A stretch of DNA of 64,000 nucleotides, taken from contig NZ_LT799418.1 of NCBI RefSeq assembly GCF_900162725.1, positions 1,725,836-1,789,835 on the forward strand. Reading direction: 5' to 3'. Shown one piece after another: positions 10,832-36,071 of this stretch (position 1 is its first letter; each line of letters starts with the position of its first letter). The notes below the pieces were generated by a model that was not told where the DNA came from, did not search any database, and saw nothing but the letters and a program-made list of their open reading frames with translations. The translations under genes and the position numbers were made by a program. The stretch is from Parabacteroides sp. Marseille-P3160 (GTDB lineage: Bacteria > Bacteroidota > Bacteroidia > Bacteroidales > Tannerellaceae).

Positions 10832-10858
10832 AATAAAATTCCAAGTTTTTTCTATCTG

Positions 10859-10890
10859 GCGGGAGGCAGCGAATGCCTCCCGTTTTTTTA
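10859..10890 (+). terminator. Rho-independent terminator after the M13 peptidase gene
   Basis: Perfect 9-bp stem CGGGAGGCA/TGCCTCCCG (10860-10882) with a 5-base loop, followed by T7. It lies 28 bases after the stop. Confidence 0.88.
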
Positions 10891-10934
10891 TGCTAATTAT
10901 TCATAAGGGGTATCTGGCGGGTCGAAAAAAAATG

Positions 10935-15336: not shown

Positions 15337-17775
15337 TCATCGGATATTTGCAATCGAGATGATGTCGGAAAAAACACCGGCGGCCGTCACGTCCGCACCG
15401 GCTCCATAGCCCTTGATCACCATCGGATAGTCATGATAGCGTTCGGTCGAGATCATGATAATATTATTGCTTCCCTCCAGTTCGTAAAAGGGATGGCTGC
15501 GGTCGACGGCTTCCAGCCCCACTTCGCAAATTCCCCTGTTCATCCGGGCGACAAAGCGGAGCCGTTTATGTTCGGATTCCAATTGCTTGCGTTTTTCCTC
15601 GAATTCCGCATCCACTTGCCGGATATTCGTCCAAAAGTCGTCCAGCGTACCCTCGAAACAGGCCGCGGGCAGGAGCGGATGCTGTATTACATCTTCGCAC
15701 TCCACTTTGTATCCGGCTTCGCGCGCGAGGATCACCAACTTCCGTGTCACATCAACGCCGCTCAGGTCGATCCGCGGATCCGGTTCCGAGTACCGGGCTT
15801 CTTTTGCCATTTTTACCGCCCGGCTGAAAGGAACTTCTTCGCTGATTGCATTGAAAATGAAATTAAGCGTACCGGAAACGACTGTCTCCAGTTTCAGTAT
15901 ATGGTCTCCGCTGTTAATCAAGTCGTTCATCGTGTTGATGATCGGCAGGCCGGCGCCTACGTTCGTTTCGAAGAGGAACTTGACTCCCCGTCGCCGGGCC
16001 GTGTCTTTCAGCGTCTGATAGTTGCTGTATGCGGAAGAAGCGGCGATCTTGTTGGCGGTTACTACGGAAACGTTGTTGTTCAGCAAGGTTTCGTATACGT
16101 CCGCCACCTGTTCGCTGGACGTACAATCTACAAAAACCGAGTTGAAAATATTCATTTTCAGCACTTCCTCGACCAACTTACCGGTCGAGCTGTCTTCTCC
16201 CTTTTCCCTCAGTTCCTTAATGCAATGATCCAGCTTAATGCCTTCGCGGATGAACAAAGCCTTATGGGAGTTGGCAATGCCTACGACTTTCAGCTTCAGC
16301 CCGCTTTTCATCAGGTTCTCCTGTTGGGCGCGGATCTGTTCAATCAGGTTACTGCCCACTGTCCCCACACCCACTATAAAAAGGTTAAGTACTTTATATT
16401 CCGATAGGAAGAAGGAGTCATGGATGGAATTCAGCGCCTTGCGAAGGTATTCCAGCTTGATGACAAAGGAGATGTTTGTTTCCGAAGCCCCCTGGGCACA
16501 GGCAATCACGCTGATGCCCGCCCTTCCGAGCGTTCCGAACAGTTTACCGGCAATGCCCGGCGTCCGCTTCATGTTTTCTCCTACGATGGCGACCGTCGCA
16601 AGATCCTTTTCGGCAATCATATCGTTGATTTCCCCTTGCTGGCGTTCCAATGCAAACTCTTCGTTCAACATCTGGACGGCCATGTCGGCATCCGCATTAC
16701 AAACGGCGAATGTCGTATTGTTTTCCGAACTGGCCTGGGAAACCATAAAGACACTGATGCCGTTTTTTGCCAGCGTCTTGAATATCCTGTAATTGACTCC
16801 GATCACTCCGACCATACCCAATCCCTGCACCGTGACCAGGCAAGTGTCATTAATGGAGGAAATACCCTTGATCAGGGCTTTTCCTGAAGTCTTGGGGAGT
16901 TCGCCCGAGATCAGCGTGCCGGGAGCTTCCGGATTGAAGGTGTTGCGTACGCGGATCGGGACGTTTTTATGATAAACCGGATAGATGGTCGGCGGATAGA
17001 TCACTTTAGCACCGAAATTACAAAGCTCCATCGCCTCGGTAAAAGTCAGCTGTTCGATCACATACGCCGAACTGATCACCCGGGGATCGGCCGTCATAAA
17101 GCCGTCCACATCCGTCCATATCTCTAAAATATTTGCATTCAGCGCTGCCGCCAGGATGGAAGCGGTATAGTCCGATCCGCCCCGTCCCAAGTTGGTAATT
17201 TCACCATTCTCCTTGTTGGAAGAGATAAAACCGGGGACCAGCGACACCTTGGGCAGCGTCTGGAAGGTTTCTTGGATCAACCGGTTAGTCAGGTCGAAAT
17301 CAACGATATTCTTATTGAATTGCTTGATTGTCTTAATGAACTTGCGGGCGTCATAAAGTTGGGCGTCTTTGATGACCTTGGATATGATGAGTGATGAAAT
17401 CCGTTCCCCATAGCTGACAATCGCATTGGATGTTTTCACCGAAAGGTCATTGATCAGAAAAACCCCCTTATAAATATTCCGGAGTTCCTCCAATAAGGTC
17501 AATACGTCCGCCTGGACTTTCTTGCACAAGTCGTCTTCCGGGATGACTCCCTCGATGACATTCATGTGGCGTGTGACAAGGTCCGCAAATTCTTTCTCGT
17601 AAATGATATTCCCCTGGGCGGCCATTTGCGAGATGGATAATAACTTGTCGGTTATACCGCCGAGGGCGGAAACGACGACGATTACAGGCTCTTCTACAGC
17701 CTCTACTATTTTCTTTACACTCAAAATACTATTCACGGAACCTACGGATGTTCCGCCGAATTTCAATACTTTCAT
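15337..17775 (-). CDS. thrA: Bifunctional aspartokinase / homoserine dehydrogenase
   Basis: This 812-residue fusion catalyses the first and third steps of the aspartate-to-threonine/methionine route. The aspartokinase domain is N-terminal (MKVLKFGGTSVGSVNSI, then VTNLGRGGSDYTASILA-like sequence near residue 205). Two ACT-type regulatory segments occupy about residues 310-455. The dehydrogenase follows with the NAD-binding LFIVGVGTVGSNLIEQI and LNFIFNAISEEVPFSRA. Length and order match E. coli ThrA. ACT domains imply feedback control by threonine. An apparent leader-peptide attenuator lies directly upstream (17801-17956). Confidence 0.97.
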   Translation of the reverse strand: MKVLKFGGTSVGSVNSILSVKKIVEAVEEPVIVVVSALGGITDKLLSISQMAAQGNIIYEKEFADLVTRHMNVIEGVIPEDDLCKKVQADVLTLLEELRNIYKGVFLINDLSVKTSNAIVSYGERISSLIISKVIKDAQLYDARKFIKTIKQFNKNIVDFDLTNRLIQETFQTLPKVSLVPGFISSNKENGEITNLGRGGSDYTASILAAALNANILEIWTDVDGFMTADPRVISSAYVIEQLTFTEAMELCNFGAKVIYPPTIYPVYHKNVPIRVRNTFNPEAPGTLISGELPKTSGKALIKGISSINDTCLVTVQGLGMVGVIGVNYRIFKTLAKNGISVFMVSQASSENNTTFAVCNADADMAVQMLNEEFALERQQGEINDMIAEKDLATVAIVGENMKRTPGIAGKLFGTLGRAGISVIACAQGASETNISFVIKLEYLRKALNSIHDSFFLSEYKVLNLFIVGVGTVGSNLIEQIRAQQENLMKSGLKLKVVGIANSHKALFIREGIKLDHCIKELREKGEDSSTGKLVEEVLKMNIFNSVFVDCTSSEQVADVYETLLNNNVSVVTANKIAASSAYSNYQTLKDTARRRGVKFLFETNVGAGLPIINTMNDLINSGDHILKLETVVSGTLNFIFNAISEEVPFSRAVKMAKEARYSEPDPRIDLSGVDVTRKLVILAREAGYKVECEDVIQHPLLPAACFEGTLDDFWTNIRQVDAEFEEKRKQLESEHKRLRFVARMNRGICEVGLEAVDRSHPFYELEGSNNIIMISTERYHDYPMVIKGYGAGADVTAAGVFSDIISIANIR

Positions 17776-17990: not shown

Positions 17991-18174
17991 CATATTATTT
18001 TTCAAAATCAATCGTATTTGCCGGAAAATAATCCCCATGAGTGTCTTTTCTCTCCCGTTTGTTAGTCATTAATTCTTAAGATTCCGGGCTGTCCGTACGC
18101 TCTTTTTCATGCAATACGCGCAAGAGATTGGCAAATGATGCTTGAGGCGATCGGCTTTCGGTATATCCGGTTGA

Positions 18175-18262
18175 GTGTTTGACGGCTGTAGAACACGTGT
18201 TCTATAGCCGTCAAACAGGTGTTTTACAGCTGTGAAACACCTGTTCTATAGCTATCAAACAC
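18175..18262. repeat. Array of four 22-bp palindromic units
   Basis: Four contiguous 22-base units start at 18175, 18197, 18219 and 18241. Each is an imperfect palindrome of the form GTGTT-N5-GC-N5-AACAC (the last starts CTGTT, the second ends AACAG). Neighbouring units are also near reverse complements of one another: 18180-18213 is a 34-base palindrome with one mismatched pair. The array lies between the divergent thrA and cutC promoters in an otherwise empty region (18000-18330). Confidence 0.85.
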
Positions 18263-18337
18263 TAATTTGGGTTCGGTGAAGCATGATATTGAGTGTACAT
18301 CTATCTGAAAGACAGTATAGGAAAGCTTTATTTTTCC

Positions 18338-18345
18338 TATTTTTG
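18338..18345 (+). promoter_or_regulatory. -7 promoter box (TATTTTTG) of cutC
   Basis: Exact TAnnTTTG match 16 bases upstream of the ATG at 18362. The short distance leaves a leader of only about ten bases, so the second ATG at 18368 is also possible. Confidence 0.55.
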
Positions 18346-18361
18346 TTTCGTCAAAAATTAA

Positions 18362-19123
18362 ATGAAGATGAGCGAAACAAACCGGGTTATTGAAATATGC
18401 GCCAATTCGGCGCAGAGTTGTGTAGAGGCGGAGGCCGGAGGAGCCCGCAGAGTGGAATTGTGCGCCGGCATTCCCGAGGGCGGAACTACCCCTTCCTGCG
18501 GTGAGATCCGGACGGCGCAGGAGTTGACGGCTTCCATCGACATCAACATAATTATCCGTCCCCGCGGGGGGGATTTCCTATATACCGGGGCGGAGATCCG
18601 GTCGATGTTGCTGGATATCGAACTGGCGAAAGAGCTGAAGGTGCATGGGGTTGTTTTCGGTTGCCTGACGGAAACGGGGGATATCGACGTTCCCTTGCTT
18701 CACCGGCTTGTTGCGGCCGCCCGCCCGTTGTCGGTAACGTTTCACCGGGCTTTCGACGTCTGCCGCGATCCTTTCGTCGCTTTGGAACAAATCATTGGTG
18801 CGGGATGCGACCGGATTCTGACTTCCGGGCAGCAGTCGGATGCCGTGAAGGGGATTCCCTTGATTGCCGAGCTTGTCAGGAGGGCGGCCGGGCGGATCAT
18901 TATTATGCCGGGTTGCGGCGTAAGGGAAGAGAATATTGCGCAGATAGAGGCGGCAACCGGGGCGACGGAGTTTCATTCTTCGGCCCGGAACATTGTCCGG
19001 AGCCGGATGGCTTACCGGAAGGAGGCGGTGCCGATGGGGAGCAGCGCTGTCACTTCCGAGTTCGAAACCATGCAGACCGACCGCCGGAAAGTGGCAGCTC
19101 TATGCAACCGGAAATTTAGTTGA
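18362..19123 (+). CDS. cutC: CutC-family protein
   Basis: This 253-residue cytoplasmic TIM-barrel protein shows the CutC signatures EICANSAQSCVEAEAGGARRVELC near the start, INIIIRPRGGDFLYT, GVVFGCLTETGDIDV and TFHRAFDVCRDPF. CutC was linked to copper tolerance in E. coli, but that role has been questioned, so the biochemical function should be treated as unknown. The barrel ends with the phosphate-binding-like loop IIMPGCGVREENI. GC-rich and core-like. It has its own promoter box; the DUF4954 gene begins 70 bases downstream. Confidence 0.93.
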   Translation: MKMSETNRVIEICANSAQSCVEAEAGGARRVELCAGIPEGGTTPSCGEIRTAQELTASIDINIIIRPRGGDFLYTGAEIRSMLLDIELAKELKVHGVVFGCLTETGDIDVPLLHRLVAAARPLSVTFHRAFDVCRDPFVALEQIIGAGCDRILTSGQQSDAVKGIPLIAELVRRAAGRIIIMPGCGVREENIAQIEAATGATEFHSSARNIVRSRMAYRKEAVPMGSSAVTSEFETMQTDRRKVAALCNRKFS

Positions 19124-24695: not shown

Positions 24696-25007
24696 ATGAT
24701 GAATTTATTCTTAAAGAGACAATATGAAAATGTGTTTACCACATTTCTAAATTATTTAGGAGTAAAATATACAGAATCATTCTCCAACAAATTCTATGCG
24801 GAACATCCGCATAAATATAATCTGTATGGGTTGTCCAGCATGTTGTCAGATTATAAAATTGAAAATGCAGGGATACAATGCAATGATAAAAAAAATGCAT
24901 TGTCCGAGATGGAATATCCTTTTATAGCCCATGTAGGAGCAGATTTCTCGGTTGTATATAAGATAATATCCGGAGATGTATATTATATATGGAGAGGAAA
25001 GATTTGA
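24696..25007 (+). pseudogene. C39-like N-terminal domain split by a frameshift from the VKOR gene
   Basis: This 103-residue frame resembles the inactive C39-peptidase-like N-terminus of Bacteroidota VKOR fusion proteins: LNYLGVKYTESFSNKFYAEH, HPHKYNLYGLSSMLSDY and FIAHVGADFSVVYKI. The catalytic QxxxxDCG motif of true C39 peptidases is absent. It stops with TGA at 25005-25007, 19 bases into the VKOR frame. A single added base would join YYIWRGK to DLKVNTDDFCKTWSG, which is the normal continuation of the domain. This is therefore the 5' part of one broken gene, unless -1 frameshifting restores it. No canonical slippery heptamer was found. Confidence 0.75.
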
Positions 25008-26266
25008 AAGTAAATACCGACGATTTTTGCAAGACCTGGTCCGGCGTTGCTCTTCTGGTAGAGACCAGTAATCTGTCTATAGAACCTGACTATAAGGAAC
25101 ATAAAAGGAATGAGCTGTTTTTATCGGGACAAAAACTACTTCTGTATTTTTTCATTTGTCTATTGGGGATTCTGTTTTTTATAAGAAACAATCCATACGA
25201 TATGGGCCGTTTGTTGTTTACTGCAGTTAATCTTGCCGGAATTTATGTCGGTTATCTTCTTGTTCTTAAACAAATGCATATTCAAGGTAGCTACGCAGAT
25301 AAAATCTGCTCCCTTTTTAGAAAGAGCGACTGCAATGATGTCCTCGAATCGGCGGCCGCAAAAATAGGAGGGGTTCTTGGCTGGATTGAAATAGGTATAG
25401 GCTATTTTCTTACGAATTTATTTATCGCAATAGCTATACCTCCGCTTTTACCATATGTTGCCGTAATAAATATCTTTGCTTTACCTTATAGTTTTTGGAG
25501 CATATGGTATCAGAAGGTAAAAGTCAAACAGTGGTGTCCGCTTTGTTTGCTTGTGCAGGTTTTAGTATGGATCATCTTCCTTGTTGATGCAGGATCCGGC
25601 TTTATTCGTTTTTCAGATCTTGGAATAACGAATTTTTTGATCGTAGGTTTATTATATATGATTCCTATCTTTTCTATTAATCTATTAATGCCTAAATTAA
25701 TTGAAAGCAATAGGACTTCACAGATAGCTCAGGAATTGAATAGCATAAAAGCAAATGAAGATGTTTTCTCTGCCATGTTAAAACAGCAGCCTCATTATGA
25801 AGTGAATCGGGAATCCTCCAATATCCTATGGGGAAATTTATCTGGTACCGTTCTTGTTACTATTCTTACCAATCCGCATTGTAATCCATGTGCCAAGATT
25901 CATAAGCGCATTAATGTGCTATTGAAACAAACTAATCATTTATGTGTACAGTATATTTTTTCTTCTTTTAGCAAAGAATTGGACGATAGCAATAAATTTC
26001 TTATGGCAATCTATTTTAACAGGAGTGATCTTGACAGAAAACGGATATACGATGAATGGTTTGAAGGAGGAATGTTTAAAAGAGAGGGCTTCTTTGAAAG
26101 ATACGAAGTAAATGTAAAAGGTAATATGGTGATCAATGAGTTTGGAAAACACGAAACGTGGAAGGAACAAACAAAGCTTCATGCGACTCCCACGATTTTG
26201 GTTAATGGTTATGTTTTGCCGAATAATTATAAAATAGAAGACCTAAGATACATAAAATCGATTTAA
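24989..26266 (+). CDS. Vitamin K epoxide reductase (VKOR)-family thiol oxidase with C-terminal thioredoxin domain
   Basis: The 425-residue frame starts inside the C39-like domain (FCKTWSGVALLVE) and continues with four or five transmembrane helices of a VKOR domain, containing the Cys pairs SLFRKSDCNDVLESAAAKIG and QWCPLCLLVQ. A periplasmic thioredoxin-like domain follows with TNPHCNPCAKIHKRI (CxxC) and the cis-Pro region HATPTILVNGY. VKOR-thioredoxin fusions create disulfide bonds in exported proteins using quinones. Immediately downstream is a cysteine-rich exported peptide, its likely client. If only this frame is translated (ATG 24989), the redox domains are intact despite loss of the N-terminal domain. 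AT-rich, unlike core genes. Confidence 0.85.
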   Translation: MERKDLKVNTDDFCKTWSGVALLVETSNLSIEPDYKEHKRNELFLSGQKLLLYFFICLLGILFFIRNNPYDMGRLLFTAVNLAGIYVGYLLVLKQMHIQGSYADKICSLFRKSDCNDVLESAAAKIGGVLGWIEIGIGYFLTNLFIAIAIPPLLPYVAVINIFALPYSFWSIWYQKVKVKQWCPLCLLVQVLVWIIFLVDAGSGFIRFSDLGITNFLIVGLLYMIPIFSINLLMPKLIESNRTSQIAQELNSIKANEDVFSAMLKQQPHYEVNRESSNILWGNLSGTVLVTILTNPHCNPCAKIHKRINVLLKQTNHLCVQYIFSSFSKELDDSNKFLMAIYFNRSDLDRKRIYDEWFEGGMFKREGFFERYEVNVKGNMVINEFGKHETWKEQTKLHATPTILVNGYVLPNNYKIEDLRYIKSI

Positions 26267-26380
26267 ATCTACTATTACAAAGCTATAGGGTAATAGGCAA
26301 TAAACTGATCACTTGTTGCATAGTTTCTATAGCATCACTTTAAATAAAATGAAAAATGAAAAATGAAAAAGTAGCGAAAA

Positions 26381-26617
26381 ATGAAAATGTATGATGTGGC
26401 ACAGCTTGATGATTGTGCAATGAAAAGTATTGTCGGGGGAAATGATGGATATGATGGAACATTTACTGCTGGAACTTTTAATTGTTCATGTTCAAATGGT
26501 GCAAATCCACCTTTTAGCTCCTCTTGGACTAAAACTTACAGCAGTACTAAAGAGATTATAGATGATATTTCTGGAAAATGTGTAGAAGGAAAAGGAGGTT
26601 GCAGGGCTGCTTCTTAA
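26381..26617 (+). CDS. Double-glycine-leader secreted peptide precursor, four-cysteine core
   Basis: The 78-residue product splits into a 20-residue leader ending LDDCAMKSIVGG and a 58-residue core starting NDGYDGTFTAG. The leader fits the LSxxELxxIxGG rule for substrates of C39 peptidase exporters at its key hydrophobic positions (Leu -12, Met -7, Ile -4, Gly-Gly). The core has Cys at 35, 37, 67 and 74 (NCSCSNG ... GKCVEGKGGCRAAS), so two disulfides are possible. It lies between the VKOR-thioredoxin gene and a TlpA-like gene, with the C39 ABC exporter 1.9 kb downstream. No match to a named bacteriocin is recognised; toxin, signal or host-directed roles are all open. Start at ATG 26381 in an AAAAATG context. 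Confidence 0.75.
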   Translation: MKMYDVAQLDDCAMKSIVGGNDGYDGTFTAGTFNCSCSNGANPPFSSSWTKTYSSTKEIIDDISGKCVEGKGGCRAAS

Positions 26618-26762
26618 TTAATTGAAATTTAGGAATTGGGGGGTTATTTAATCTTCTATAGTTAATAGCTGTGAATATGTTTATTAATCTATTGTTTTCT
26701 AATGCCCATACATTGGAAAAATTTAGTAGAAGGATAAAATAACCCCTATAATGTGAAAATAG

Positions 26763-28232
26763 ATGAAAATGAAAATAATAATAACCCTATTGATATTTTC
26801 TGTTGGCCAAGTATTTGCTCAAACTACAACTATAACATTTCATACAAAGGAGGATATATCAGTCAGTATATATAGACCGATTGATGATGCTTTCAATAAT
26901 TATATTGTCTCTGACAAATTAGAATTAAAACCTAATATAAGCATTGATTATAAGTTGGATATTTGTGGTTTGAATTTTATAGAATGTAAGTATTCCAATG
27001 GGAGTAGGTATATGCTTATTTTGCAAGGTAATGAAAGTTTAACTCTTGATTATTCGAAGGATGGGATTACAATTACCGGAAAGAATTCAGAAGGTATGTC
27101 TTATTTTAATAATAACTTTTTTATCCCTGGATTCTTAAAGTATGGAATAGAAATAGATTCTATTTTTTCTCAAAATCTTTACAAAGAAATAGATTTGAAG
27201 TCTATTAATAGACAAATCCAACATCTATTATCTGGGTTCTCCAGGGATATCCAAAGATTAAAATCAGAAAAGAAAGTAACATCTGAATTTTGTCATGCAT
27301 TGGATAATGACATTCATTTTGCGATTTATAATGAATTCATACGTAATTTGAGAGGATTGCTTTTTCAGAAAGAGATTAAACTTAAATCTGAAGATATTCG
27401 TGAAATAAACAATTTAATCGAAACCATATATAGAGATTATCCTCCAATGAATGAAGATATTCTTCGATATAGCTTTGGTCCTAATTATGTTTCTAGCTAT
27501 TATAATAATTTATATGGAAAATTAGATAAGGTAGAAAAAGAGAAGCTTGTAGCTGGGTATGGTGAAAATGCATTTGGCCCCTATGTTCCTTTTCTATTGG
27601 CCCCTGATTCTATTCAATTACCCTATTTGGGAGGTGCTTATATCATACAGTTGCAATATATGGTTAATGAATTTGATCAAGATAAAATGTTTAGATATTT
27701 GACAAATAAGTATCCGCAGAGTCAATATGTGGCAATAATAAAAAAGAGGAGAGATGAAAAGAGATTGGAATCTACGAATAATAAAAATGATTCTATTATT
27801 GTTGTTGTTGATCAGATAAATAGTTTAAAAGAGCTATCTAAGGTCGAAGGGATAAAAAACAACTATATCTTTATTGACTTATGGGCAACATGGTGTAATC
27901 CGTGTAAAACTGAGTTTCAGTATAATGAGGAGTTGCATGATTTGCTTAATAAGTATGATGGTCTTGTTCCTGTTTATCTTTCGATTGATGAGGACCGATT
28001 TGAAAAGCTTTGGCGAAAAAATATAGACGAGTTTCACCTGACTGGTTATAATCTAAGGATATCAAAATATTTATCTACCGATATTCAACGTCAAATTTAT
28101 AAAGGTGGTACATTTATCATTCCTCGTTATATTCTATTGGATCAGAATGGTGAAATCTTAGATGATGATTTGCCCAGACCCAGTTCAATAAGTAAATTGA
28201 AAGAACGATTGGATGATAAAATTATGAAATAG
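26763..28232 (+). CDS. Exported TlpA-like thioredoxin-domain protein
   Basis: The 489-residue protein has a Sec signal (MKIIITLLIFSVGQVFAQ), a beta-rich N-terminal domain (about residues 20-120) like those preceding TlpA domains in Bacteroidota (DUF4369-type pattern), a helical middle and a C-terminal redoxin domain with FIDLWATWCNPCKTEFQYNE (WCxxC) and a cis-Pro region FIIPRYILLDQNGEIL. It should act in the periplasm as a thiol-disulfide reductase or isomerase. Between the cysteine-rich peptide gene and the exporter it probably corrects or reduces peptide disulfides. AT-rich. Confidence 0.85.
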   Translation: MKMKIIITLLIFSVGQVFAQTTTITFHTKEDISVSIYRPIDDAFNNYIVSDKLELKPNISIDYKLDICGLNFIECKYSNGSRYMLILQGNESLTLDYSKDGITITGKNSEGMSYFNNNFFIPGFLKYGIEIDSIFSQNLYKEIDLKSINRQIQHLLSGFSRDIQRLKSEKKVTSEFCHALDNDIHFAIYNEFIRNLRGLLFQKEIKLKSEDIREINNLIETIYRDYPPMNEDILRYSFGPNYVSSYYNNLYGKLDKVEKEKLVAGYGENAFGPYVPFLLAPDSIQLPYLGGAYIIQLQYMVNEFDQDKMFRYLTNKYPQSQYVAIIKKRRDEKRLESTNNKNDSIIVVVDQINSLKELSKVEGIKNNYIFIDLWATWCNPCKTEFQYNEELHDLLNKYDGLVPVYLSIDEDRFEKLWRKNIDEFHLTGYNLRISKYLSTDIQRQIYKGGTFIIPRYILLDQNGEILDDDLPRPSSISKLKERLDDKIMK

Positions 28233-28554
28233 ATTCTATTCTTATTTATGCTGATTTAATGTTGTAAATTACTTATAAAGAAGTTGTCTGTCACTAAAAA
28301 AGTATATGTGGATAAGTTATAATATCAGTTTTATATTATTGTTTATATCTCCGATGTAACTCAATATTCCTAATAAATTTTTTAAAATCTTGTGATGTGA
28401 TAAAGCTAAAAACGAAAGAGAAGAGGATTAATGATCGTGTAACATTAAAATGTTTTTCGATAAACTTTTAATTGTTAGATAGATAATATAATGGATGAAT
28501 TTCGAAAAGGGGAACTCACTCAATAAAAAATGGATTCATATTAGTTTTATTATG
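28233..28554. other. AT-rich gap before the peptide exporter
   Basis: No gene, hairpin or exact -7 box is seen here. An in-frame ATG at 28495 could lengthen the exporter by 20 residues, but the added sequence has no resemblance to the family. Confidence 0.5.
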
Positions 28555-30765
28555 ATGAAAGGCTTTCCTCTTTACACCCAATTAGACAGAATGGATTGTG
28601 GTCCAAACTGTTTACGTATGATCGCAAAATATTATGGACGTAATTATACATTACAAACATTAAGAGAAAAAAGTTTTATTACCCGGGAAGGAGTATCTAT
28701 GTTAGAGATTAGCGATGCAGCAGAAAGTATCGGATTCCATACGAATGGAGTACGAATTACTTTTAAACAATTAATTGAAGATGTACCATTGCCCTGTATT
28801 CTACATTGGAATCAGAGCCATTTTATAGTTTGTTATGGCATTAAGAAAAAGAAGGAGGAAGAATATATCATTAAGATAGCTGATCTTGCAGGGGAAAAGT
28901 ATACGATGGATAAAAAAGGTTTCCTTAAATGCTGGATCAGTAGCAAATCAAATAATGAGGATACCGGAACAGCCTTATTGCTGAACCCCACTCCTGAATT
29001 TTACACTATTGAAGACGATAAAGATAAACAGGAAAAGAACCTCAGCTATTTCTGGGGATATCTCCGACCCTATAAGAGCCAGCTTATCCAATTGATTGTC
29101 GGTCTGCTTATAGGAAGCGTTTTGTCACTCATCTTCCCTTTCCTCACCCAAGCGGTGGTAGACCAGGGTATCGGTAATAATAACTTGAATTTTATTACAC
29201 TGGCTTTGATTGCCCAATTAACTCTTTCCATTACTCAAATGGCTGTCGGATTTATCCAAAACTGGATTACCCTTCATATGAATACCCGTATCAGCATCCT
29301 GTTAATCTCAGATTTTTTGGCTAAGCTGATGAAGCTGCCGCTCCGTTTCTTCGATGCAAAGAACGTGGGGGATATCATGCAGCGTATCGGCGATCATAGC
29401 CGTATCCAATCCTTTATGACGGGGACTACCCTGACGACCCTCTTTTCTTTTTTCAATTTTTTTATTTTTGCTGCGATACTGGGCTATTATAACCTCACCA
29501 TTCTGTTTGTTTTTCTTGTCGGAAACACAATTTACGTTACTTGGATTTTATTTTTTATGCGTTTCCGTAGAAAACTTGATTATAGCCGTTTTACACAATC
29601 TTCGGCAAACCAGGGAAGCCTGATCCAGCTTGTAACCGGAATGCAGGAAATAAAACTGAACAATTGCGAAAAGCAACAACGCTGGAAATGGGAACGGATA
29701 CAGGTGAAACTATTTAATATCAGCATTAAAGGAATGGCTTTGGGACAATACCAACAAGTCGGTTCAGTTTTCTTTAGCCAAACAACGACTTTATTGATCT
29801 CTTTCCTTTCAGCCAAGGCCGTGATCGATGGAAACATTACTCTGGGTATGATGATGTCCATCAGTTATATTATTGGCCAATTATCCGGTCCGATCGGACA
29901 AGTAATCAGCTTTTCCCAATCCCTTCAAGATGCTAAAATAAGTTTGGAACGCCTTAATGAAATCCATAACAAGGAGGATGAAGAACAAACCATTAAAGAT
30001 ACAATTCATGAATTACCGGAAGACAAATCTATTTACTTAAATGAAGTCTGTTTCAGTTACGACGGGGCAGAGAGGGATTATGTTTTAGATCACCTTAGTA
30101 TCCGGGTCCCCCAGCATAAAATTACGGCGATCGTGGGATCGAGCGGAAGCGGAAAAACGACGGCAATCAAACTGTTACTCGGCTTTTATGCACCCTTAAA
30201 GGGGACATTAAAGGTAGGAAACCTTTCTCTTGGCGAGATAAACCCGCATTTATGGCGCCAGAAAGCGGGAGCTGTGATGCAAGATGGCTTTATCTTTTCC
30301 GATACAATAGCCAATAATATCGCCGTTGGAGAAGAAGCGATCGATAAGAAGCGGTTACTTCATGCCGTAGAGATCGCTAATATCAAAGAATTTGTCGAAT
30401 CCTTGCCTTTAAAATATAATACCAAGGTCGGTATGGAAGGAAACGGCATCAGCCAGGGGCAACGGCAACGTTTATTGATCGCCCGTGCCGTCTATAAGAA
30501 TCCGGAGTATCTTTTTTTTGATGAAGCGACCAACGCCTTGGATGCAAACAACGAACGGATCATCATGGACAATCTGAATGCCTTTTACCGGGGAAAGACG
30601 GTGGTGATCGTCGCCCATCGCTTGAGCACGGTCCAGCATGCAGATAATATCATTGTTTTGGAAAAAGGGAAAGTGATTGAAGAGGGAACACATCATGAGT
30701 TGACAGCTAAGAAGGGAGCTTATTATACGCTGGTGAAAAACCAACTGAATATATATTTCAATTGA
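28555..30765 (+). CDS. Peptidase-containing ABC transporter (C39 peptidase, peptide exporter)
   Basis: This 736-residue PCAT has an N-terminal C39 peptidase (QLDRMDCGPNCLRMIAKYYG with the nucleophile Cys; catalytic His in HWNQSHFIVCYG), a six-helix ABC exporter domain (about residues 160-450) and a C-terminal ATPase (Walker A GSSGSGKTTAIKLLLGF, signature GISQGQRQRLLIARAVY, Walker B YLFFDEATNALD). PCATs cut double-glycine leaders and export the core peptide across the inner membrane. The start at 28555 (MKGFPLYTQLD) is where the family begins; an ATG at 28495 is possible. The obvious substrate is the peptide at 26381-26617. No HlyD-type adaptor or TolC-type channel is found in the island. The 3' half is richer in GC than the 5' half. 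Confidence 0.95.
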   Translation: MKGFPLYTQLDRMDCGPNCLRMIAKYYGRNYTLQTLREKSFITREGVSMLEISDAAESIGFHTNGVRITFKQLIEDVPLPCILHWNQSHFIVCYGIKKKKEEEYIIKIADLAGEKYTMDKKGFLKCWISSKSNNEDTGTALLLNPTPEFYTIEDDKDKQEKNLSYFWGYLRPYKSQLIQLIVGLLIGSVLSLIFPFLTQAVVDQGIGNNNLNFITLALIAQLTLSITQMAVGFIQNWITLHMNTRISILLISDFLAKLMKLPLRFFDAKNVGDIMQRIGDHSRIQSFMTGTTLTTLFSFFNFFIFAAILGYYNLTILFVFLVGNTIYVTWILFFMRFRRKLDYSRFTQSSANQGSLIQLVTGMQEIKLNNCEKQQRWKWERIQVKLFNISIKGMALGQYQQVGSVFFSQTTTLLISFLSAKAVIDGNITLGMMMSISYIIGQLSGPIGQVISFSQSLQDAKISLERLNEIHNKEDEEQTIKDTIHELPEDKSIYLNEVCFSYDGAERDYVLDHLSIRVPQHKITAIVGSSGSGKTTAIKLLLGFYAPLKGTLKVGNLSLGEINPHLWRQKAGAVMQDGFIFSDTIANNIAVGEEAIDKKRLLHAVEIANIKEFVESLPLKYNTKVGMEGNGISQGQRQRLLIARAVYKNPEYLFFDEATNALDANNERIIMDNLNAFYRGKTVVIVAHRLSTVQHADNIIVLEKGKVIEEGTHHELTAKKGAYYTLVKNQLNIYFN

Positions 30766-31200: not shown

Positions 31201-32271
31201 GATTTTTTAGAAACGAATGAGTGTTATTGTTTGATTGTTGAAAGTAATGTTGAATTAAATGTAACAATTGAAGAGCTTGAGAATATAATGAAATATTTTC
31301 CTAAAGATTTAGATATTTATTTTCCGTATGATTTACCCAAAAGAAACTTAGAACAAACTAATTTAAAGAAAGCTTTACTAAATAAGAATTCATGTGAGAA
31401 AGGCAATATGGATCCCTATTTTCTTGGCTATAAATGGGGAAATTCCATTTATTTTTTAAGCAAGAAAGGGGCTGAGAAATTACTTACTATAAATCCGATT
31501 AAAGATCGATTAGATAATGAATTTGTAAATTTATCGTTAAATGGACGATTGAATGCTTATTATGAGGATGTCCCATGGTTAACATTTGAGCAAATTGATT
31601 GGGGAGAATGGCCTGCAAGAATTAAGTGCATTTGGGATACCTTAATCAAAATAAGTCCTTGGACTATGGATCGGAAAAGAAAAGTAAAAAAGTTACTTTC
31701 AATTATTAGTGATATTGCTTATCAACTTAAAATTGAGCTTGTTTTACAGGGTGGTACCCATTTGGGATACATTCAACATGGAGGAATAATGCCTTGGGAT
31801 GATGATGTCGATCTTGGTATAGAGGAAAAGGATGTTTCTGCTTTTTTTGAAAAATTACAACAGGAACAAGATGTTTCATTTGATGAGTTCGTCGAGCATC
31901 GGTCGCAGAAAAATTATTATAAGATATGGGGGTGTGAAGGGGAAGAAATTTCTGGATATAAATATACATTTCCATTTATAGACCTTTGGGTATATAAAAG
32001 ACAAGGTGCTGATTTGGTTTTTGCTAATGGAATTATTTGCCCAAATTCCGCTTTATATGAATTCAAGAAGATAATATTTGAAGATTCTCTTTTTTATATT
32101 AGAGCCAACTCGATTGAAGTATTAGATAGTAGATATACATCTTGGAAAGATAAAATAATTGTGTATGCATGGGGACATAGATTAGAGCAACCTTATTTCC
32201 CGCGTGTAAGTTTACCTATCCAAACCGACGATGAAGGTCGAATGATAGGATTAAAAAATAATTATATATGA
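31201..32271 (+). pseudogene. 5'-truncated GT25-like/LicD fusion (sugar-phosphate transferase remnant)
   Basis: The frame opens after a TAA at 31198-31200 with FLETNECYCLIVESNVEL, which reads as the inside of a protein. It has no ATG until 31288 (a TTG at 31231 is another option). Residues up to about 120 resemble GT25 glycosyltransferase C-termini (GNSIYFLSKKGAEKLL). The remainder is a LicD domain with LVLQGGTHLGYIQHGG and MPWDDDVDLGIEE, the metal-binding Asp cluster of this nucleotidyltransferase-fold family, which adds phosphocholine-like groups to glycans. The LicD part is complete and might still be made. The 5' end was evidently lost in the deletion that joined it to the preceding remnant. 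Confidence 0.65.
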
Positions 32272-32365: not shown

Positions 32366-33142
32366 TTGTTCTTCAAAATAGAAAAGACAGATGAGAACGT
32401 GAATCAGAAAGAACAATTAGATGAATTGGTGAGGGAATTCAATGTTCCTTCCTTCATCGAGCGGGATCCTATTCGTTTTCCCCGTCGTTTTACGCGATTG
32501 CAGGATATCGAAGTGTCGGCCGTACTGACTTCGGTCATTACTTGGGGAAAACGGAGTTCGATCCTGAACGATGCGGATAAAATGCACCGGGTGATGGGGT
32601 ATGCTCCTTATGATTATATTATGAGTAAAGAATGGGAGGGGCTCCGTCACTCCCGGAAAAACATTCACCGCACCTTCTTCGAGCACGATCTGCATGATCT
32701 CTGCCGGAGCTTGTATGCTTATTATTCGGAAAACGAATCTTTGGAAGACCTGTTTACTCCGGAAAACGGAGGTGTCCTGAAGGGCTTGGCGCGTTTCGGG
32801 GCAATGGCGGACATGCGGCATGTTACGGCATCTATAGATACCAGTCCGTGCAAACGAACCAATCTAATGCTTCGCTGGCTGGTACGGAACGATGGAATCG
32901 TCGATCTGGGAGTTTGGACGAAGATCCGCCCGGCCGACCTGATCATTCCCTTGGATACCCATGTATGCCGGATTGCCCGTCGGCTATGGAGCAATGACCT
33001 TCCGAAAACGGACCGGATGGCTACTGCCCTGAAAATTACAGAACGGTTAAAGGATATGTGCCCGGAAGATCCCTGCAAATATGATTTTGCCTTGTTCGGA
33101 TTGGGTGAAGCGGGAGGCGTCTTTCCTTTCTCCCGTCTATAA
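32366..33142 (+). CDS. TIGR02757-family protein (DUF2400)
   Basis: The 258-residue protein contains IEVSAVLTSVITWGKRSSIL, FGAMADMRHVTASIDTSPCKR-like sequence and DLIIPLDTHVCRIARRL. I recall this family as TIGR02757/DUF2400; the last motif resembles the helix-hairpin-helix DNA-glycosylase fold, but no glycosylase activity is established. There is no ATG at the expected start. The frame opens at TTG 32366 or GTG 32399, both plausible. It begins 21 bases after the right direct repeat, so before the island arrived it probably directly followed the ABC permease. It converges on the helicase gene with a 10-base gap. Confidence 0.85.
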   Translation: MFFKIEKTDENVNQKEQLDELVREFNVPSFIERDPIRFPRRFTRLQDIEVSAVLTSVITWGKRSSILNDADKMHRVMGYAPYDYIMSKEWEGLRHSRKNIHRTFFEHDLHDLCRSLYAYYSENESLEDLFTPENGGVLKGLARFGAMADMRHVTASIDTSPCKRTNLMLRWLVRNDGIVDLGVWTKIRPADLIIPLDTHVCRIARRLWSNDLPKTDRMATALKITERLKDMCPEDPCKYDFALFGLGEAGGVFPFSRL

Positions 33143-33152
33143 CCCGGATGAC

Positions 33153-35336
33153 TTATCCATTGCCTTCCATCTTCTTTATTTTTGCACTGAACCGAATACT
33201 CCGTTCCGTCTCTAAGTTGTCGAACAGGATGGAATAGGCCGATTCGTTTAGGTGGATGCTTACGATTGTTCCCGGACCGAATACCGGGTGTTCGATTCGG
33301 TCTCCGGCCTGGAAGGTTTGCTCCTGGGACAGGAGGGTGATCCGCCGGGTATAGTTTTCCAGGTAAGGATCAAGTTCTTTTACGAACTTCAGGTTTTCTT
33401 TGCCGGCATCGAAAATGAAGCGGGAAGGGAATTTGAAGACGCCGTCGTTCGAGATGCCTTCCGAATCGGAAAGATAAAGCCGGTCCATCGCCCGGGTCAT
33501 GGCGACATAGGCCAGGCGCCGCTCTTCATCCATTTCTTCCGGAGTATTAATGCGGCGGCCGGGGAAAACGCCCTCATTCAGCCCACAGATAAAAACATAA
33601 GGAAATTCCATCCCTTTCGAGGTGTGGATCGTCATTAGTTTGACGGTCTCCTGCCGGTCTTCATGATCCAGGTTCGTATATAAAGCGATCCGGTCTAAGA
33701 AGCCTTCCAAGGAAGCATCGTCGTCCAAACCCGCTGCTTCTACAGCCCGTTTAAGTTCGGCTACGTTATCGAGCCGTTCCTGGTCGCCCTGTAAACGCAG
33801 GAATTCCTCATAACCGCTCCTGTCGAGCAACGTCTGCAATAAGTCACCGAGACGGTTTGTCCTATATTGTTCCTTTACATACTCAATGGCGTCTACATAG
33901 CGTCCGGCCTGCGTGTTGCTGAACAGATAGGTGTTCAGGTTCTCTTTTAAGGCTTTATAGAGCGACAAACCGGACTTATCCGCATAATTCTTGAGAAACT
34001 CGATTTTCTTCTTCCCGATTTTCCGCGACGGCGTATTGATTGTACGCAAAAAAGCAATGTCGTCTCCCGCGCTGACCATACGCAGGTAGCAGATCACGTC
34101 TTTGATCTCTTTGCGTCCATAGAACTCAACCCCGCTGTAAATATTGTAGGATAATCCTTTTTCGATAAAGCACTCTTCCAACGCCCGGGTGAGATAATGC
34201 GCGCGATAGAGTACGGCTACTTGGTTCAATAAGGCGCCGGCCCCCCGTAACCGGTTGATTTCCGCGTAGATCCATTCCGCTTCTTCCTTTTCGGTATGCG
34301 CATGATTGTAGAGTGGAAGCTCTCCGGTAGGTTTGGTCGGGATAAGGACTTTGGGAAAACGAAGGACATTCTTTTCGATCAAGGTATTCGAGGCCTTCAG
34401 GATCTCCGGAGTGGAGCGATAATTCGTTGTCAGCACAATTGTTTTGGCTTCGGGATAGATTTTGTCGAAGTCAAGGAACAATTTTACGTGGGATCCGCGC
34501 CAGGAATAGATTGTCTGGTCGGGATCCCCGACAATAAAGAGGTTGCCATGTTTGCCGGCAAGCATTTGTGCAATTTTATATTGTCGAAGGCTTACATCCT
34601 GGAATTCGTCGACCATCACATATTGCATCCGGTCCTGCCACTTTTTCAAAACATCGGGAAAATGTTCCAGAATGTAAGTTGTAAAATTGATCAGATCGTT
34701 AAAGTCACAGCCGAAGCTTTTCTTTTGCTCGTACAGGTAGCGCAGGAAGATTTCTTCATCGCGGTCTGTCGTTTGCGTAAATTTCGCTTTCAGCTCCTCA
34801 TTATTCAGTTCGTAGATATAGTCGATATAGGTCGTGGCATATAGCTTTTTAGCCTCGAGTACCTCATCGATCGTACGTTTGATTGTCGTTTCGCGAAGCG
34901 TCAGTTTCATCTCTTCGAAAATATTCAACAGCAATTGCTTCTGATCTTCCACATCCAGGATGATAAAGTTTTTCGGAAAGTTCAGGACGTGGATGTCTTC
35001 TTTGAGCAATTGCACGCAAAAGGCATGAAAGGTACAGACATAGCCGAGGTCCATGTCCCCCAATGCCGCCCTGACGCGCTGTTTCATCTCATTTGCTGCC
35101 CGGTTCGTGAAGGTGACACACAGAATGTTTTTAGGAGCCACCCCGGCCGTATCGGTGAGATAACAATAACGTGAAGTCAATGCGCGTGTCTTTCCGGTAC
35201 CGGCTCCCGCCAGTACGCGTACGGCGCCTTCGGTCGTCCGGACGGCTTCGAGTTGTTCGGGATTGAGTTTAGCCAAATAGTTTTCCAAAGCAGATAATCT
35301 TATTAATCTTTTGGGGAACATAAACGGTAAAACCAT
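33153..35336 (-). CDS. pcrA: UvrD/PcrA-type ATP-dependent DNA helicase
   Basis: The 727-residue superfamily 1 helicase shows all main motifs in order: Walker A VLAGAGTGKTRALTSRY, MVDEFQDVSLRQY (II), GDPDQTIYSWRGSH (III), LTTNYRST (IV), LMTIHTSKGMEFPYVFICGL (V) and RRLAYVAMTRAMDRL (VI). The C-terminus has a Tudor-like domain (RIEHPVFGPGTIVSIH), as in PcrA/UvrD. It unwinds DNA 3'-to-5' in repair and replication. ATGs at 35336 and 35321 are both possible. A 7/8 -7 box lies at 35352-35359. Confidence 0.94.
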   Translation of the reverse strand: MVLPFMFPKRLIRLSALENYLAKLNPEQLEAVRTTEGAVRVLAGAGTGKTRALTSRYCYLTDTAGVAPKNILCVTFTNRAANEMKQRVRAALGDMDLGYVCTFHAFCVQLLKEDIHVLNFPKNFIILDVEDQKQLLLNIFEEMKLTLRETTIKRTIDEVLEAKKLYATTYIDYIYELNNEELKAKFTQTTDRDEEIFLRYLYEQKKSFGCDFNDLINFTTYILEHFPDVLKKWQDRMQYVMVDEFQDVSLRQYKIAQMLAGKHGNLFIVGDPDQTIYSWRGSHVKLFLDFDKIYPEAKTIVLTTNYRSTPEILKASNTLIEKNVLRFPKVLIPTKPTGELPLYNHAHTEKEEAEWIYAEINRLRGAGALLNQVAVLYRAHYLTRALEECFIEKGLSYNIYSGVEFYGRKEIKDVICYLRMVSAGDDIAFLRTINTPSRKIGKKKIEFLKNYADKSGLSLYKALKENLNTYLFSNTQAGRYVDAIEYVKEQYRTNRLGDLLQTLLDRSGYEEFLRLQGDQERLDNVAELKRAVEAAGLDDDASLEGFLDRIALYTNLDHEDRQETVKLMTIHTSKGMEFPYVFICGLNEGVFPGRRINTPEEMDEERRLAYVAMTRAMDRLYLSDSEGISNDGVFKFPSRFIFDAGKENLKFVKELDPYLENYTRRITLLSQEQTFQAGDRIEHPVFGPGTIVSIHLNESAYSILFDNLETERSIRFSAKIKKMEGNG

Positions 35337-35351
35337 ATTTATTCCCTGTTA

Positions 35352-35359
35352 TAAAAGTA
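35352..35359 (-). promoter_or_regulatory. Candidate -7 box of the helicase gene
   Basis: Reverse strand TACTTTTA matches TAnnTTTG at 7 of 8 positions, 15 bases upstream of the ATG at 35336 and 30 upstream of the ATG at 35321. Tentative. Confidence 0.3.
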
Positions 35360-35433
35360 ATCCATATTTTGTAAATATCAAGCCTTCATTCAAACGCGAA
35401 CCGGTAAATAGTTTTTATTTGAAGGTTTTCATG

Positions 35434-35441
35434 TATATTTG
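35434..35441 (+). promoter_or_regulatory. -7 promoter box (TATATTTG) of the LEA-like lipoprotein gene
   Basis: Exact TAnnTTTG match 45 bases upstream of the ATG at 35487, within the divergent intergenic region. Confidence 0.55.
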
Positions 35442-35486
35442 ACGCTGAAAACGGGTATTGGTTTTGTTTGTTAAGATAAATAAAAA

Positions 35487-36071
35487 ATGAGGAAAAAGTT
35501 CATGGCGCTTTGCTTAGCGCTGATTGCGTTCGTAAGTTGCGACAGTCTTCAGAAAGGTTTGACCAGTTCGTATAATATGATCCATTGTGATTATAGTTAC
35601 CAATCTATATCCAATTTGTCGTTGTCCGGAATGGATTTGTCGAATGGGCTTTCGCTGGCTTCCATTCCCAAAGTCACTTCCATTCTGGCAGGTACGGCGA
35701 CTTCCATCCCTTTGGATTTCGTGCTGAATCTAAATGTGAAGAATCCCAATCAATCGGAAGCGATGCTTCACGGATTGCAATATATTATAAGCATTGATGA
35801 TATCCAATTTACGACAGGATCGCTGAACCAGACGCTTCAGGTTGGGGCGGGACAAAGCCGTACCTTGCCCCTCGCGATCGGCTTCGACTTGGTCACCCTG
35901 ATGAAAAATAATTCGAAAGAGGCCATTACCGGTATTGCAAAGAACTTTATCGGCATCGGAACGGAAAAATCAAATGTAACCGTTCAACTTAAACCTACCT
36001 TCATGATAGGCGATGTACCCGTGACTTCACCCGTATATATCCCGGTTCATTTTAGCATCGGAGGCAAATGA
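35487..36071 (+). CDS. LEA-type-2-like lipoprotein
   Basis: The 194-residue protein has a lipoprotein signal (LIAFVSCDSLQ, Cys about residue 19) and a single beta-sandwich with the late-embryogenesis-abundant type 2 pattern: SLSGMDLSNGLSLASIPKV and VLNLNVKNPNQSEAML, then LQVGAGQSRTLPLAIGF. Such domains are Ig-like folds of unknown role in bacteria, here anchored to a membrane surface. It stands alone: the helicase is divergent, and cysC converges from the right. Function is not known. Confidence 0.8.
   Translation: MRKKFMALCLALIAFVSCDSLQKGLTSSYNMIHCDYSYQSISNLSLSGMDLSNGLSLASIPKVTSILAGTATSIPLDFVLNLNVKNPNQSEAMLHGLQYIISIDDIQFTTGSLNQTLQVGAGQSRTLPLAIGFDLVTLMKNNSKEAITGIAKNFIGIGTEKSNVTVQLKPTFMIGDVPVTSPVYIPVHFSIGGK

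What the first reader, a model, noticed from the sequence alone, without database searches (positions are those of the whole stretch)
24696..30765. Exported cysteine-rich peptide system: GG-leader precursor, VKOR-thioredoxin, TlpA and C39 exporter
The sequence shows, in one direction, a VKOR-thioredoxin thiol oxidase, a 78-residue precursor whose leader fits the double-glycine rule (LDDCAMKSIVGG), an exported TlpA-like thioredoxin and a full C39 peptidase ABC transporter. The core peptide has four cysteines. From family knowledge, C39 exporters cut GG leaders and VKOR enzymes form disulfides. Inference: a secreted, disulfide-bonded peptide whose redox folding is encoded beside it. I recognise no named bacteriocin in the core. 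No HlyD adaptor or TolC channel is in the island, so the route across the outer membrane is open.
Basis: partly seen in the sequence, partly recalled or inferred. Interest (0 to 1): 0.78.

Follow-up and report, generated by a model that had tools for sequence, protein, structure and literature searches.

The report
Disulfide-peptide export cluster, partly eroded
This stretch of a Bacteroidales-type genome carries genes to make, oxidise and export a small cysteine-rich peptide, one copy of a kit seen in many Bacteroidota whose folding enzyme normally carries an inactive copy of the exporter's own leader-cutting domain; this copy has lost some parts.

Summary
In detail: a VKOR-thioredoxin oxidase, a 78-residue precursor (20-residue GG leader, 58-residue core, four cysteines), a TlpA-like thioredoxin and a full C39-peptidase exporter lie on one strand. 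The type is real: in 33 of 68 related loci with room a GG-leader, Cys-rich ORF follows VKOR on the same strand, 0 of 68 antisense, and 36 of 36 such cores have an even cysteine count. The core belongs to a small family; one relative is 48% identical over 29 residues beside TlpA, exporter and HlyD genes. Three things were missed. The ORF at 24696 is the front of the VKOR gene, a C39 fold without the protease cysteine, cut off by a frame change. Behind the exporter lies a deletion scar; HlyD is gone. The genome also holds a radical-SAM cluster with a 77% identical exporter and intact HlyD. Best reading: a new variant of the known GG-leader/C39-export kind, with disulfide instead of radical-SAM maturation, partly eroded. 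Most novel reading: the dead C39 domain holds the leader for the oxidase.

The parts
24696..25007 (+). N-terminal part of the oxidase gene: degenerate C39-like domain (103-aa ORF), cut off from the VKOR ORF by a frame change
   Evidence: Peptidase_C39 19.8 bits, just under cut-off 22; 44-54% identical to the N terminus of 5 intact relatives; one open frame of 519-558 aa at 13 of 17 other places (alignment)
24989..26266 (+). VKOR + DsbA/thioredoxin oxidase (425-aa ORF; Cys107/115, 183/186, 298/301)
   Evidence: PF07884 and Thioredoxin_4; cysteines invariant in 52 relatives, present here
26381..26440 (+). 20-residue double-glycine leader MKMYDVAQLDDCAMKSIVGG
   Evidence: sequence; most like the leaders of L087, L058, L055 precursors; no NCBIfam hit and not significant against a general leader profile (E 2.1)
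26441..26617 (+). 58-residue core with four cysteines, CxC...W...C...C family, with stop codon
   Evidence: relatives in L187/L189, L185, L051, L120, L103
26763..28232 (+). exported TlpA-like thioredoxin (489 aa, WCNPC)
   Evidence: Thioredoxin_8 41 bits; 38% over 406 to L053 and 28% over 499 columns to the TlpA beside the L185 precursor
28495..30765 (+). C39-peptidase ABC exporter (PCAT), 756 aa; Cys35, His109, Asp130, Walker A/B present
   Evidence: 82% to L053 (G007), 78% to L058, 77% to L173 of the same genome
30735..31238 (+). glycosyltransferase-4 remnant = residues 94-261 of the L173 homologue, with in-frame stops at 30885 and 31218, overlapping the exporter's end (deletion scar)
   Evidence: 64% identity over 168 aa; stops
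31201..32271 (+). GT25-like/LicD gene, apparently lacking its first ~92 residues (ORF 31231-32271)
   Evidence: LicD 56 bits; aligns to residues 93-423 of 426 of the L116 homologue at 29%

Best explanation
The island is a maturation-and-export cluster for one small secreted peptide, of a type spread over the Bacteroidota. The C39 peptidase of the exporter cuts the precursor after Gly-Gly and the exporter moves the 58-residue core across the inner membrane (inferred from the family). In the periplasm the VKOR-DsbA enzyme, re-oxidised by quinone, puts two disulfides into the four-cysteine core, with the TlpA-like protein reducing or reshuffling wrong bonds (inferred; the cysteine sites are all there). 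In intact relatives the oxidase begins with a catalytically dead C39 fold, expected on the cytosolic side; here it is split off by a frame change. HlyD, a LanC-like gene and the front of a glycosyltransferase were probably lost by deletion behind the exporter. If still working, this copy would have to borrow the HlyD of the genome's radical-SAM cluster. The product is most likely a bacteriocin-like antagonist of related bacteria (inference by analogy with bacteroidetocins).
For: Gene content. Linkage across the phylum: GG-leader ORF with at least 4 Cys within 1.5 kb downstream of VKOR on the same strand in 33 of 68 loci with room (80 in all), 0 of 68 antisense, 4 of 55 at 6-7.5 kb downstream, 1 of 1360 base-shuffled stretches. 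Even Cys number in 36 of 36 such cores (3 or more Cys) against 709 of 1752 control ORFs without a GG leader. Exporter in 43, HlyD-like in 35, one cluster of TlpA-like thioredoxins in 31 of 80 loci. Core homologues with GG leaders beside TlpA-like genes. VKOR Cys pairs and DsbA CxxC invariant in 52 relatives and present here. Fold of an intact relative: C39 / VKOR / DsbA modules. Erosion. HlyD in trans.
Against: 35 of 68 loci with room show no GG/Cys-rich ORF under the strict rule. The window leader is divergent (no NCBIfam hit at E 1; E 2.1 with a 73-leader profile). The oxidase is split, HlyD is missing, GT4 is a remnant. No expression or activity data; no immunity gene recognised. Core relatives are rare: 3 of 393 order genomes (own included) and 2 of 395 phylum genomes (own included; the other a 23-position hit in a 33-aa frame).
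Confidence: 0.75

Rival explanations
1. The island is a dead remnant: the peptide gene survives by chance among broken genes and nothing is made or exported. (Compatible with the same type; it denies only that this copy works.)
For: VKOR split by a frame change, HlyD and LanC-like missing and GT4 reduced to a stop-bearing fragment, only one VKOR match of this family in the genome.
Against: Precursor, TlpA-like and exporter ORFs are intact with their active-site residues; each domain of the split oxidase is as similar to 5 relatives (C39-like 44-54%, VKOR 45-53%, Trx 50-56%) as intact L056 is to L054, L055 and L057 (46-56%, 43-49%, 50-54%), so no drift is visible; HlyD is available elsewhere. 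The four-gene bacteroidetocin region, with no HlyD among its genes, was sufficient in E. coli (PMC6671954, section 7).
Confidence: 0.3
2. The peptide is a signal or symbiosis factor, not an antimicrobial.
For: GG-leader/C39 systems also carry pheromones (family knowledge; PMC7595303 seen only in a listing); no immunity gene was recognised.
Against: No sensor or regulator was recognised among the island's genes; bacteroidetocin regions likewise have no immunity gene and their peptides still kill (PMC6671954, section 7).
Confidence: 0.25
3. The peptide is also glycosylated, a glycocin-like product; the glycosyltransferases are part of the system.
For: Six GT-like protein clusters lie near VKOR in 43 of 52 proteins against 386 of 781 other proteins (Fisher p 1.4e-6), in 31 of 80 loci; GT4 and GT25/LicD remnants follow the exporter here; the own radical-SAM cluster has a GT4 and two further GT-type genes.
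Against: In this copy the GT4 is broken; GT genes also make surface sugars; LanC-like genes, which often lie with them, are not enriched near VKOR (17 of 27 near, base rate 516 of 921).
Confidence: 0.2
4. VKOR and TlpA serve general envelope disulfides and sit beside the peptide gene by chance.
For: VKOR enzymes are general oxidases in many bacteria (family knowledge).
Against: VKOR relatives occur in only 15 of 393 order genomes and co-occur with GG/Cys-rich ORFs as above; intact ones carry a C39 fold; homologues of the core lie beside TlpA-like genes.
Confidence: 0.05

Closest known systems
Bacteroidetocins (Coyne et al. 2019, PMC6671954; target BamA, PMC8546649)
   Same: GG-leader peptide with four cysteines, thiol oxidoreductase and C39 exporter in one short region of Bacteroidota, found in mobile elements; no dedicated immunity gene.
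   Different: Here the leader has 20 residues (15-16 reported) and the core 58 (42-53 reported); a VKOR-DsbA oxidase with a C39-like front instead of an unnamed 5-TM protein plus oxidoreductase. Direct sequence comparison was not possible (peptide sequences not in the text read).
GG-Bacteroidales radical-SAM system (TIGR04148 maturase, TIGR04149 leader; PMC10352776, PMC4573289)
   Same: Same exporter, HlyD, LanC-like and GT4 families; 1 of 6 VKOR-cluster precursors tested passes the TIGR04149 cut-off and 3 more hit below it; the own genome holds one with a 77% identical exporter.
   Different: VKOR/TlpA in place of the radical-SAM enzyme: 0 of 80 VKOR loci hold a relative of the L173 maturase, 1 of 80 a short match to its pseudo-radical-SAM partner.
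VKOR fused to a thioredoxin-fold partner (e.g. Synechococcus VKOR, 4nv5)
   Same: VKOR four-cysteine core and thioredoxin-fold partner in one chain (that 4nv5 has the fused partner is recalled).
   Different: Extra N-terminal C39 fold without the protease cysteine.
C39-like domain of HlyB-type exporters (recalled, no call)
   Same: A dead C39 fold that could bind a substrate.
   Different: Fused to an oxidase, not to an ABC transporter.

Membership tests
GG-leader peptides exported by C39 ABC transporters (PCAT) | precursor with a double-glycine leader | tested here: met
   LDDCAMKSIVGG; homologues keep GG leaders
GG-leader peptides exported by C39 ABC transporters (PCAT) | linked exporter with C39 Cys/His/Asp and ABC motifs | tested here: met
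   Cys35, His109, Asp130, Walker A and B; which His and Asp are catalytic is by motif, recalled
GG-leader peptides exported by C39 ABC transporters (PCAT) | cleavage after GG and export | not testable with these tools
   needs an experiment
Bacteroidetocins | leader of 15-16 residues | tested here: not met
   20 residues against PMC6671954 section 14
Bacteroidetocins | mature peptide of 42-53 residues | tested here: not met
   58 residues against PMC8546649 passage
Bacteroidetocins | four cysteines, thiol oxidoreductase and C39 exporter nearby | tested here: met
Bacteroidetocins | sequence similarity to bacteroidetocin A/B | not tested
   peptide sequences were not in the text read
Class IIa bacteriocins | YGNGVxC motif | tested here: not met
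   absent from the core as read; motif as quoted in PMC6671954
GG-Bacteroidales radical-SAM system | TIGR04149 leader on the precursor | tested here: not met
   no NCBIfam hit at E 1 for the window precursor; L036 and L173 precursors pass the cut-off
GG-Bacteroidales radical-SAM system | linked TIGR04148 maturase | tested here: not met
   the only match listed for this genome is at C5:754070, about 1 Mb away
VKOR oxidoreductases | two Cys pairs (loop and CxxC) plus thioredoxin-fold CxxC | tested here: met
   Cys107/115/183/186/298/301
C39L-VKOR-DsbA fusion family | single ORF of about 520-560 aa | tested here: not met
   split into 103 and 425 aa; at least 4 of 80 other loci look split too (L069, L074, L087, L093)
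Glycocins | intact dedicated glycosyltransferase beside the precursor | tested here: not met
   GT4 is a remnant; GT25/LicD lacks its front

The most novel reading that the evidence does not exclude
A peptide system of the Bacteroidota in which a disulfide-forming enzyme is aimed at its substrate by a dead copy of the exporter's own leader-cutting domain: the C39-like front of the VKOR-DsbA protein holds the GG leader at the membrane beside the exporter, so that the core is oxidised as it emerges, before or while the true C39 domain cuts it. The same exporter chassis is used with either this disulfide module or a radical-SAM module, swapped several times, and glycosyltransferases may add sugars.
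Probability: 0.4. Interest if true: 0.8.

Novelty: new variant of a known kind. Interest (0 to 1): 0.6.

Why it matters
Bacteroides are said to lack the general machinery for disulfide formation (PMC6671954, passage), so how their secreted Cys-rich peptides are oxidised is open. The fusion of a dead leader-cutting fold to a VKOR oxidase gives a testable answer and a handle for mining: 33 candidate loci with mostly six-cysteine peptides turned up here, in many genera by their record names. The interleaved exporters suggest that one export chassis accepts two kinds of cysteine chemistry, which bears on peptide engineering and on competition within microbial communities.

Tried and rejected
Second own-genome match of the precursor (L002): rejected; about a third identical, a stop inside, antisense to a beta-ketoacyl-synthase-like gene (that gene's name is recalled from its sequence). 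Single-sequence scan of genome contigs with the precursor: 109 pattern stretches, none confirmed. Precursor in 123 family genomes: only itself and the rejected match. Plasmids by tblastn: none. PDB with the core-family profile: five matches of E 0.17-0.77, none convincing. Insertion-site comparison through the TIGR02757-like neighbour (name recalled): in 6 of 6 relatives its other neighbours differ, uninformative. Phylum search with the core profile gave one further weak match, not used. General leader profile (73 leaders): window E 2.1, no support. Programmed frameshifting or translational coupling as the reason for the split ORFs cannot be told from sequence; an assembly error at the frame change cannot be excluded.

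Mistake mended: the HlyD query was read in the wrong frame, so its HlyD column is empty and not used; redone.

Bias to declare: the two L051 peptides were found by a pattern modelled on the window core, and L103 and L120 were added after looking (L120 ranked second of 97 in an alignment test, z 3.3); so the E-values of the window ORF against that profile (1.2e-6; core only 3.6e-4) are not independent. L185 and L187 were found by genome search with a profile that included the window core. Free of that pattern are the pairwise match of L187 (48% over 29) and the match of the window precursor alone to L189:10777-10893 (36% over 44, E 0.003 in a search of four loci).

Rows dropped: 12 of 80 loci had under 1.5 kb downstream and were left out of the linkage count; cores with under 3 Cys were left out of the parity count, e.g. 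L072 with 2; the parity control counted whole ORFs of 45-110 aa, not cores; exporters with under 650 aligned residues were left out of the tree, so only 4 of 21 radical-SAM loci gave a row; the alignment for the fold used 52 of the 73 ORFs of suitable length, one with a later start. Against my GT reading: LanC-like proteins 17 of 27 near, about the base rate.

Literature: the searches listed no paper, judged by title and start of abstract, on a VKOR with a C39-like domain beside GG peptides; lists were cut (20 of 31; 20 of 758, filled by VKORC1 papers; 20 of 24), and most subscription papers are not held. Seen in part: PMC6671954 (outline, sections 7 and 14, passages), PMC10352776 (passages), PMC8546649 (passages), PMC11195462 (passages), PMC13252029 (abstract, outline, passages; a membrane-embedded peptide with disulfides; 0 occurrences of VKOR or C39), PMC4573289 (section 8, passages).


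Full report
Observation. The + strand of 24696-30765 holds, in order, a 103-aa ORF, a VKOR-thioredoxin ORF, a 78-aa ORF with a double-glycine leader, a TlpA-like protein and a C39-peptidase ABC exporter. The exporter has the C39 residues and ABC motifs. GC is 0.30-0.40 in the island against 0.48-0.51 upstream and 0.47 just downstream (32366-36000); 36000-64000 averages 0.40, so GC alone is weak. Third-position GC is 0.19-0.44 in six island genes against 0.54-0.66 in four flanking genes, so the island looks acquired (inference). Of 395 window ORFs of 35-150 aa, 2 fit the GG rule and only this one carries cysteines in its core.

The oxidase is split. Relatives of the VKOR ORF were found in 15 of 393 genomes of the order, the window's own included, and at 80 named loci of genome contigs (the best 80 of 114 kept). 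At 13 of 17 other places the open frame is 519-558 aa; the other four are 337-453. In the eight aligned the front matches the 103-aa ORF and the rest the VKOR ORF, with no residue missing at the joint. At the 80 named loci, 73 ORFs (72 loci) have 495-640 aa; L069, L074, L087 and L093 look split too. The three domains of the window copy are as similar to five relatives (44-54%, 45-53%, 50-56%) as L056, one intact relative, is to L054, L055 and L057 (46-56%, 43-49%, 50-54%; L061 is closer to it), so the split shows no trace of long decay.

What the oxidase is. An AlphaFold2 model of the intact relative L056, not of the window copy (mean pLDDT 91, pTM 0.76), falls into three known folds: the first ~122 residues align with C39 peptidase domains (PCAT1 8vp5 Z 14.1, rmsd 2.6, 119 aligned; leader-bound double-glycine protease 6mpz Z 13.9, rmsd 2.8, 120 aligned; ComA 5xe8 Z 13.0, rmsd 2.8, 115 aligned), about 163-303 with VKOR (6wv8 Z 13.3, rmsd 3.5, 135 aligned; 4nv5 Z 13.1, rmsd 2.5, 126 aligned; near the level at which helical bundles can score by chance, but Pfam names it too), and 365-524 with ScsC/BdbD/DsbA (5idr Z 16.3, rmsd 3.1, 158 aligned). 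Pfam agrees on all three (Peptidase_C39 29.2 bits over cut-off 22). 0 of 52 aligned relatives have a [DES]C[GAS] motif in the first 60 residues, and at the column that I match by eye to the catalytic histidine 0 of 52 have His and 15 have Asp, so the domain is no protease. The VKOR and DsbA cysteines are invariant in all 52 and present in the window. That the dead domain holds the GG leader is inference; no binding was tested.

The linkage is general. In 33 of 68 named loci with at least 1.5 kb downstream (12 of 80 lacked it), a GG-leader ORF with four or more cysteines starts within 1.5 kb after VKOR on the same strand; on the other strand 0 of 68; 6-7.5 kb downstream 4 of 55; just upstream of the gene 4 of 48; 6-7.5 kb upstream 1 of 48; base-shuffled sequence 1 of 1360. 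The remaining 35 of 68 have none under this strict rule. All 36 cores so placed (three or more cysteines) have an even number: 25 with six, 6 with eight, 5 with four (p 1.5e-11 against one half); of 97 unique GG cores anywhere 89 are even; of 1752 control ORFs without a GG leader 709. That is what complete disulfide pairing predicts; shared descent among cores makes the p-value too small. Clustering of 921 neighbouring proteins puts the exporter in 43, HlyD-like proteins in 35, one TlpA-like cluster in 31 and a LanC-like protein in 19 of 80 loci (most families named, the TlpA-like cluster by its WCxxC sequence). Of 55 loci with 9 kb downstream, 37 have an exporter hit in the locus; of 33 with an exporter downstream and room beyond it, 28 have HlyD.

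The core has relatives. The window core was alone in 123 family genomes. A profile of it with four look-alikes matched 3 of 393 genomes of the order: the window's own, G215 and G202. In G215, from which two of the look-alikes came, it found a further peptide, L187; in G202 it found L185; both have GG leaders. L187's core (AWTDSYSTEKEMMADIAKFCRGGGGCQA against SWTKTYSSTKEIIDDISGKCVEGKGGCRA) is 48% identical over 29 residues (E 1e-7 for this one comparison). It stands right before a TlpA-like gene. In the same stretch, L189, the window precursor alone finds another member at 10777-10893 (36% over 44, E 0.003), again with a GG leader and again beside a TlpA-like gene; an exporter 60% and a HlyD 33% identical to those of L173 follow. 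L185 stands right after a TlpA-like gene 28% identical to the window's over 499 columns. So in these four members, the window's included, the peptide is paired with a TlpA-like protein. The family is CxC...W...C...C and rare. The bias in how its first members were picked is told under Tried and rejected.

Erosion. Directly behind the exporter, and by the alignment overlapping its last 31 bases, runs a glycosyltransferase-4 remnant (residues 94-261 of the homologue in the same genome, 64% identical) with stops at 30885 and 31218, then a GT25/LicD gene without its front. In the genome's other cluster, L173, the order is exporter, HlyD, LanC-like, GT4; so one deletion from the exporter's end into GT4 would have removed HlyD and the LanC-like gene (inference). 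G007, a genome of the same family with the nearest exporter (82%), keeps TlpA, LanC-like, GT4, exporter and HlyD (the contig starts inside TlpA, so its precursor and oxidase cannot be seen). An intact HlyD, 60% identical to that of L058, lies at C5:749303.

Two chemistries, one exporter. L173 carries a TIGR04148 radical-SAM maturase (505 bits) and a TIGR04149 precursor (45 bits), with an exporter 77% identical to the window's. TIGR04148 matches occur in 23 of 123 family genomes, 21 of them over the cut-off; the L173 maturase has no relative in any of the 80 VKOR loci, though L058 has a 46-residue match to its pseudo-radical-SAM partner. In a tree of 40 exporters (34 beside VKOR, 4 beside radical-SAM, the window, G007) well supported branches force at least three changes of each label, the labels are no more clustered than in many shuffles (87 and 53 of 500 as low), and the window lies with G007 (97/95) in an eight-row clade holding 4 VKOR and 2 radical-SAM rows (100/97). 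I read this as repeated exchange of the cysteine-modifying module; the radical-SAM side rests on four rows from 21 loci.

Sugars. Six GT-like clusters (GT4, GT25-like, two of GT2/GT7 kind, DUF6734, DUF6625) are near VKOR in 43 of 52 proteins against 386 of 781 others (p 1.4e-6), in 31 of 80 loci. Counting DUF6734 and DUF6625 as GT-like is inference. LanC-like proteins are not enriched near VKOR (17 of 27; base rate 516 of 921). Glycosylation is possible and unshown. PMC10352776 (passages) already notes LanC-like proteins without LanB near CAZymes in Bacteroidales clusters.

Comparison with known systems. Bacteroidetocins (PMC6671954, sections 7 and 14) are the closest tested products: GG peptide, thiol oxidoreductase, C39 exporter, no immunity gene. 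The window peptide would work like one but does not meet the reported leader and core lengths, and sequence similarity could not be tested; I do not file it as a bacteroidetocin. It is a new variant of the GG-leader/C39-export kind. In the listings I found no paper describing the C39-like VKOR fusion; three listings were cut (see Tried and rejected).

Organism. Its order holds the locus L036, whose contig number and length (84; 24829 bases) match WRGA01000084.1 of Candidatus Azobacteroides, so it is one of the Bacteroidales (inference).

Noticed in passing
L173 16757-18580 (own genome C5:740000-759900): The radical-SAM cluster repeats a unit of about 1.26 kb: identical 73-aa GG precursor ORFs at 16757-16978 and 18020-18241 and identical 86-aa fragments of a radical-SAM N terminus at 17057-17317 and 18320-18580, as if cassettes were being duplicated and worn down.
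   Followed up: no
L058 1671-3320: A glycosyltransferase-2/LanC-like fusion protein upstream of the oxidase (Pfam hits to both, the LanC-like one just under its cut-off).
   Followed up: no
L174 929-1216 and 2700-2987; 16995 and 18589 (own genome): Duplicated ORFs flank another C39 exporter cluster with two GG-leader peptides that lack cysteines.
   Followed up: no
L176 (own genome C5:76827-77518): Remnants of a further C39 exporter and HlyD (short matches), perhaps a second eroded cluster in this genome.
   Followed up: no
L040, L043, L047: Shorter C39-like/VKOR proteins without the DsbA part. In L040 and L043 a small ORF follows with a leader-like stretch (LSxxELNxxxFSxKxTVLTP) but no GG and no cysteines, perhaps a different use of the fusion.
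   Followed up: no
L041, L046, L049, L051: Oxidase loci with several different GG-leader, Cys-rich precursors in a row, four each in L041, L046 and L049.
   Followed up: partly
L189 8531-12933: Precursors of the window's core family alternate with TlpA-like genes (precursor, TlpA, precursor, TlpA), as if each peptide came with its own thioredoxin.
   Followed up: partly
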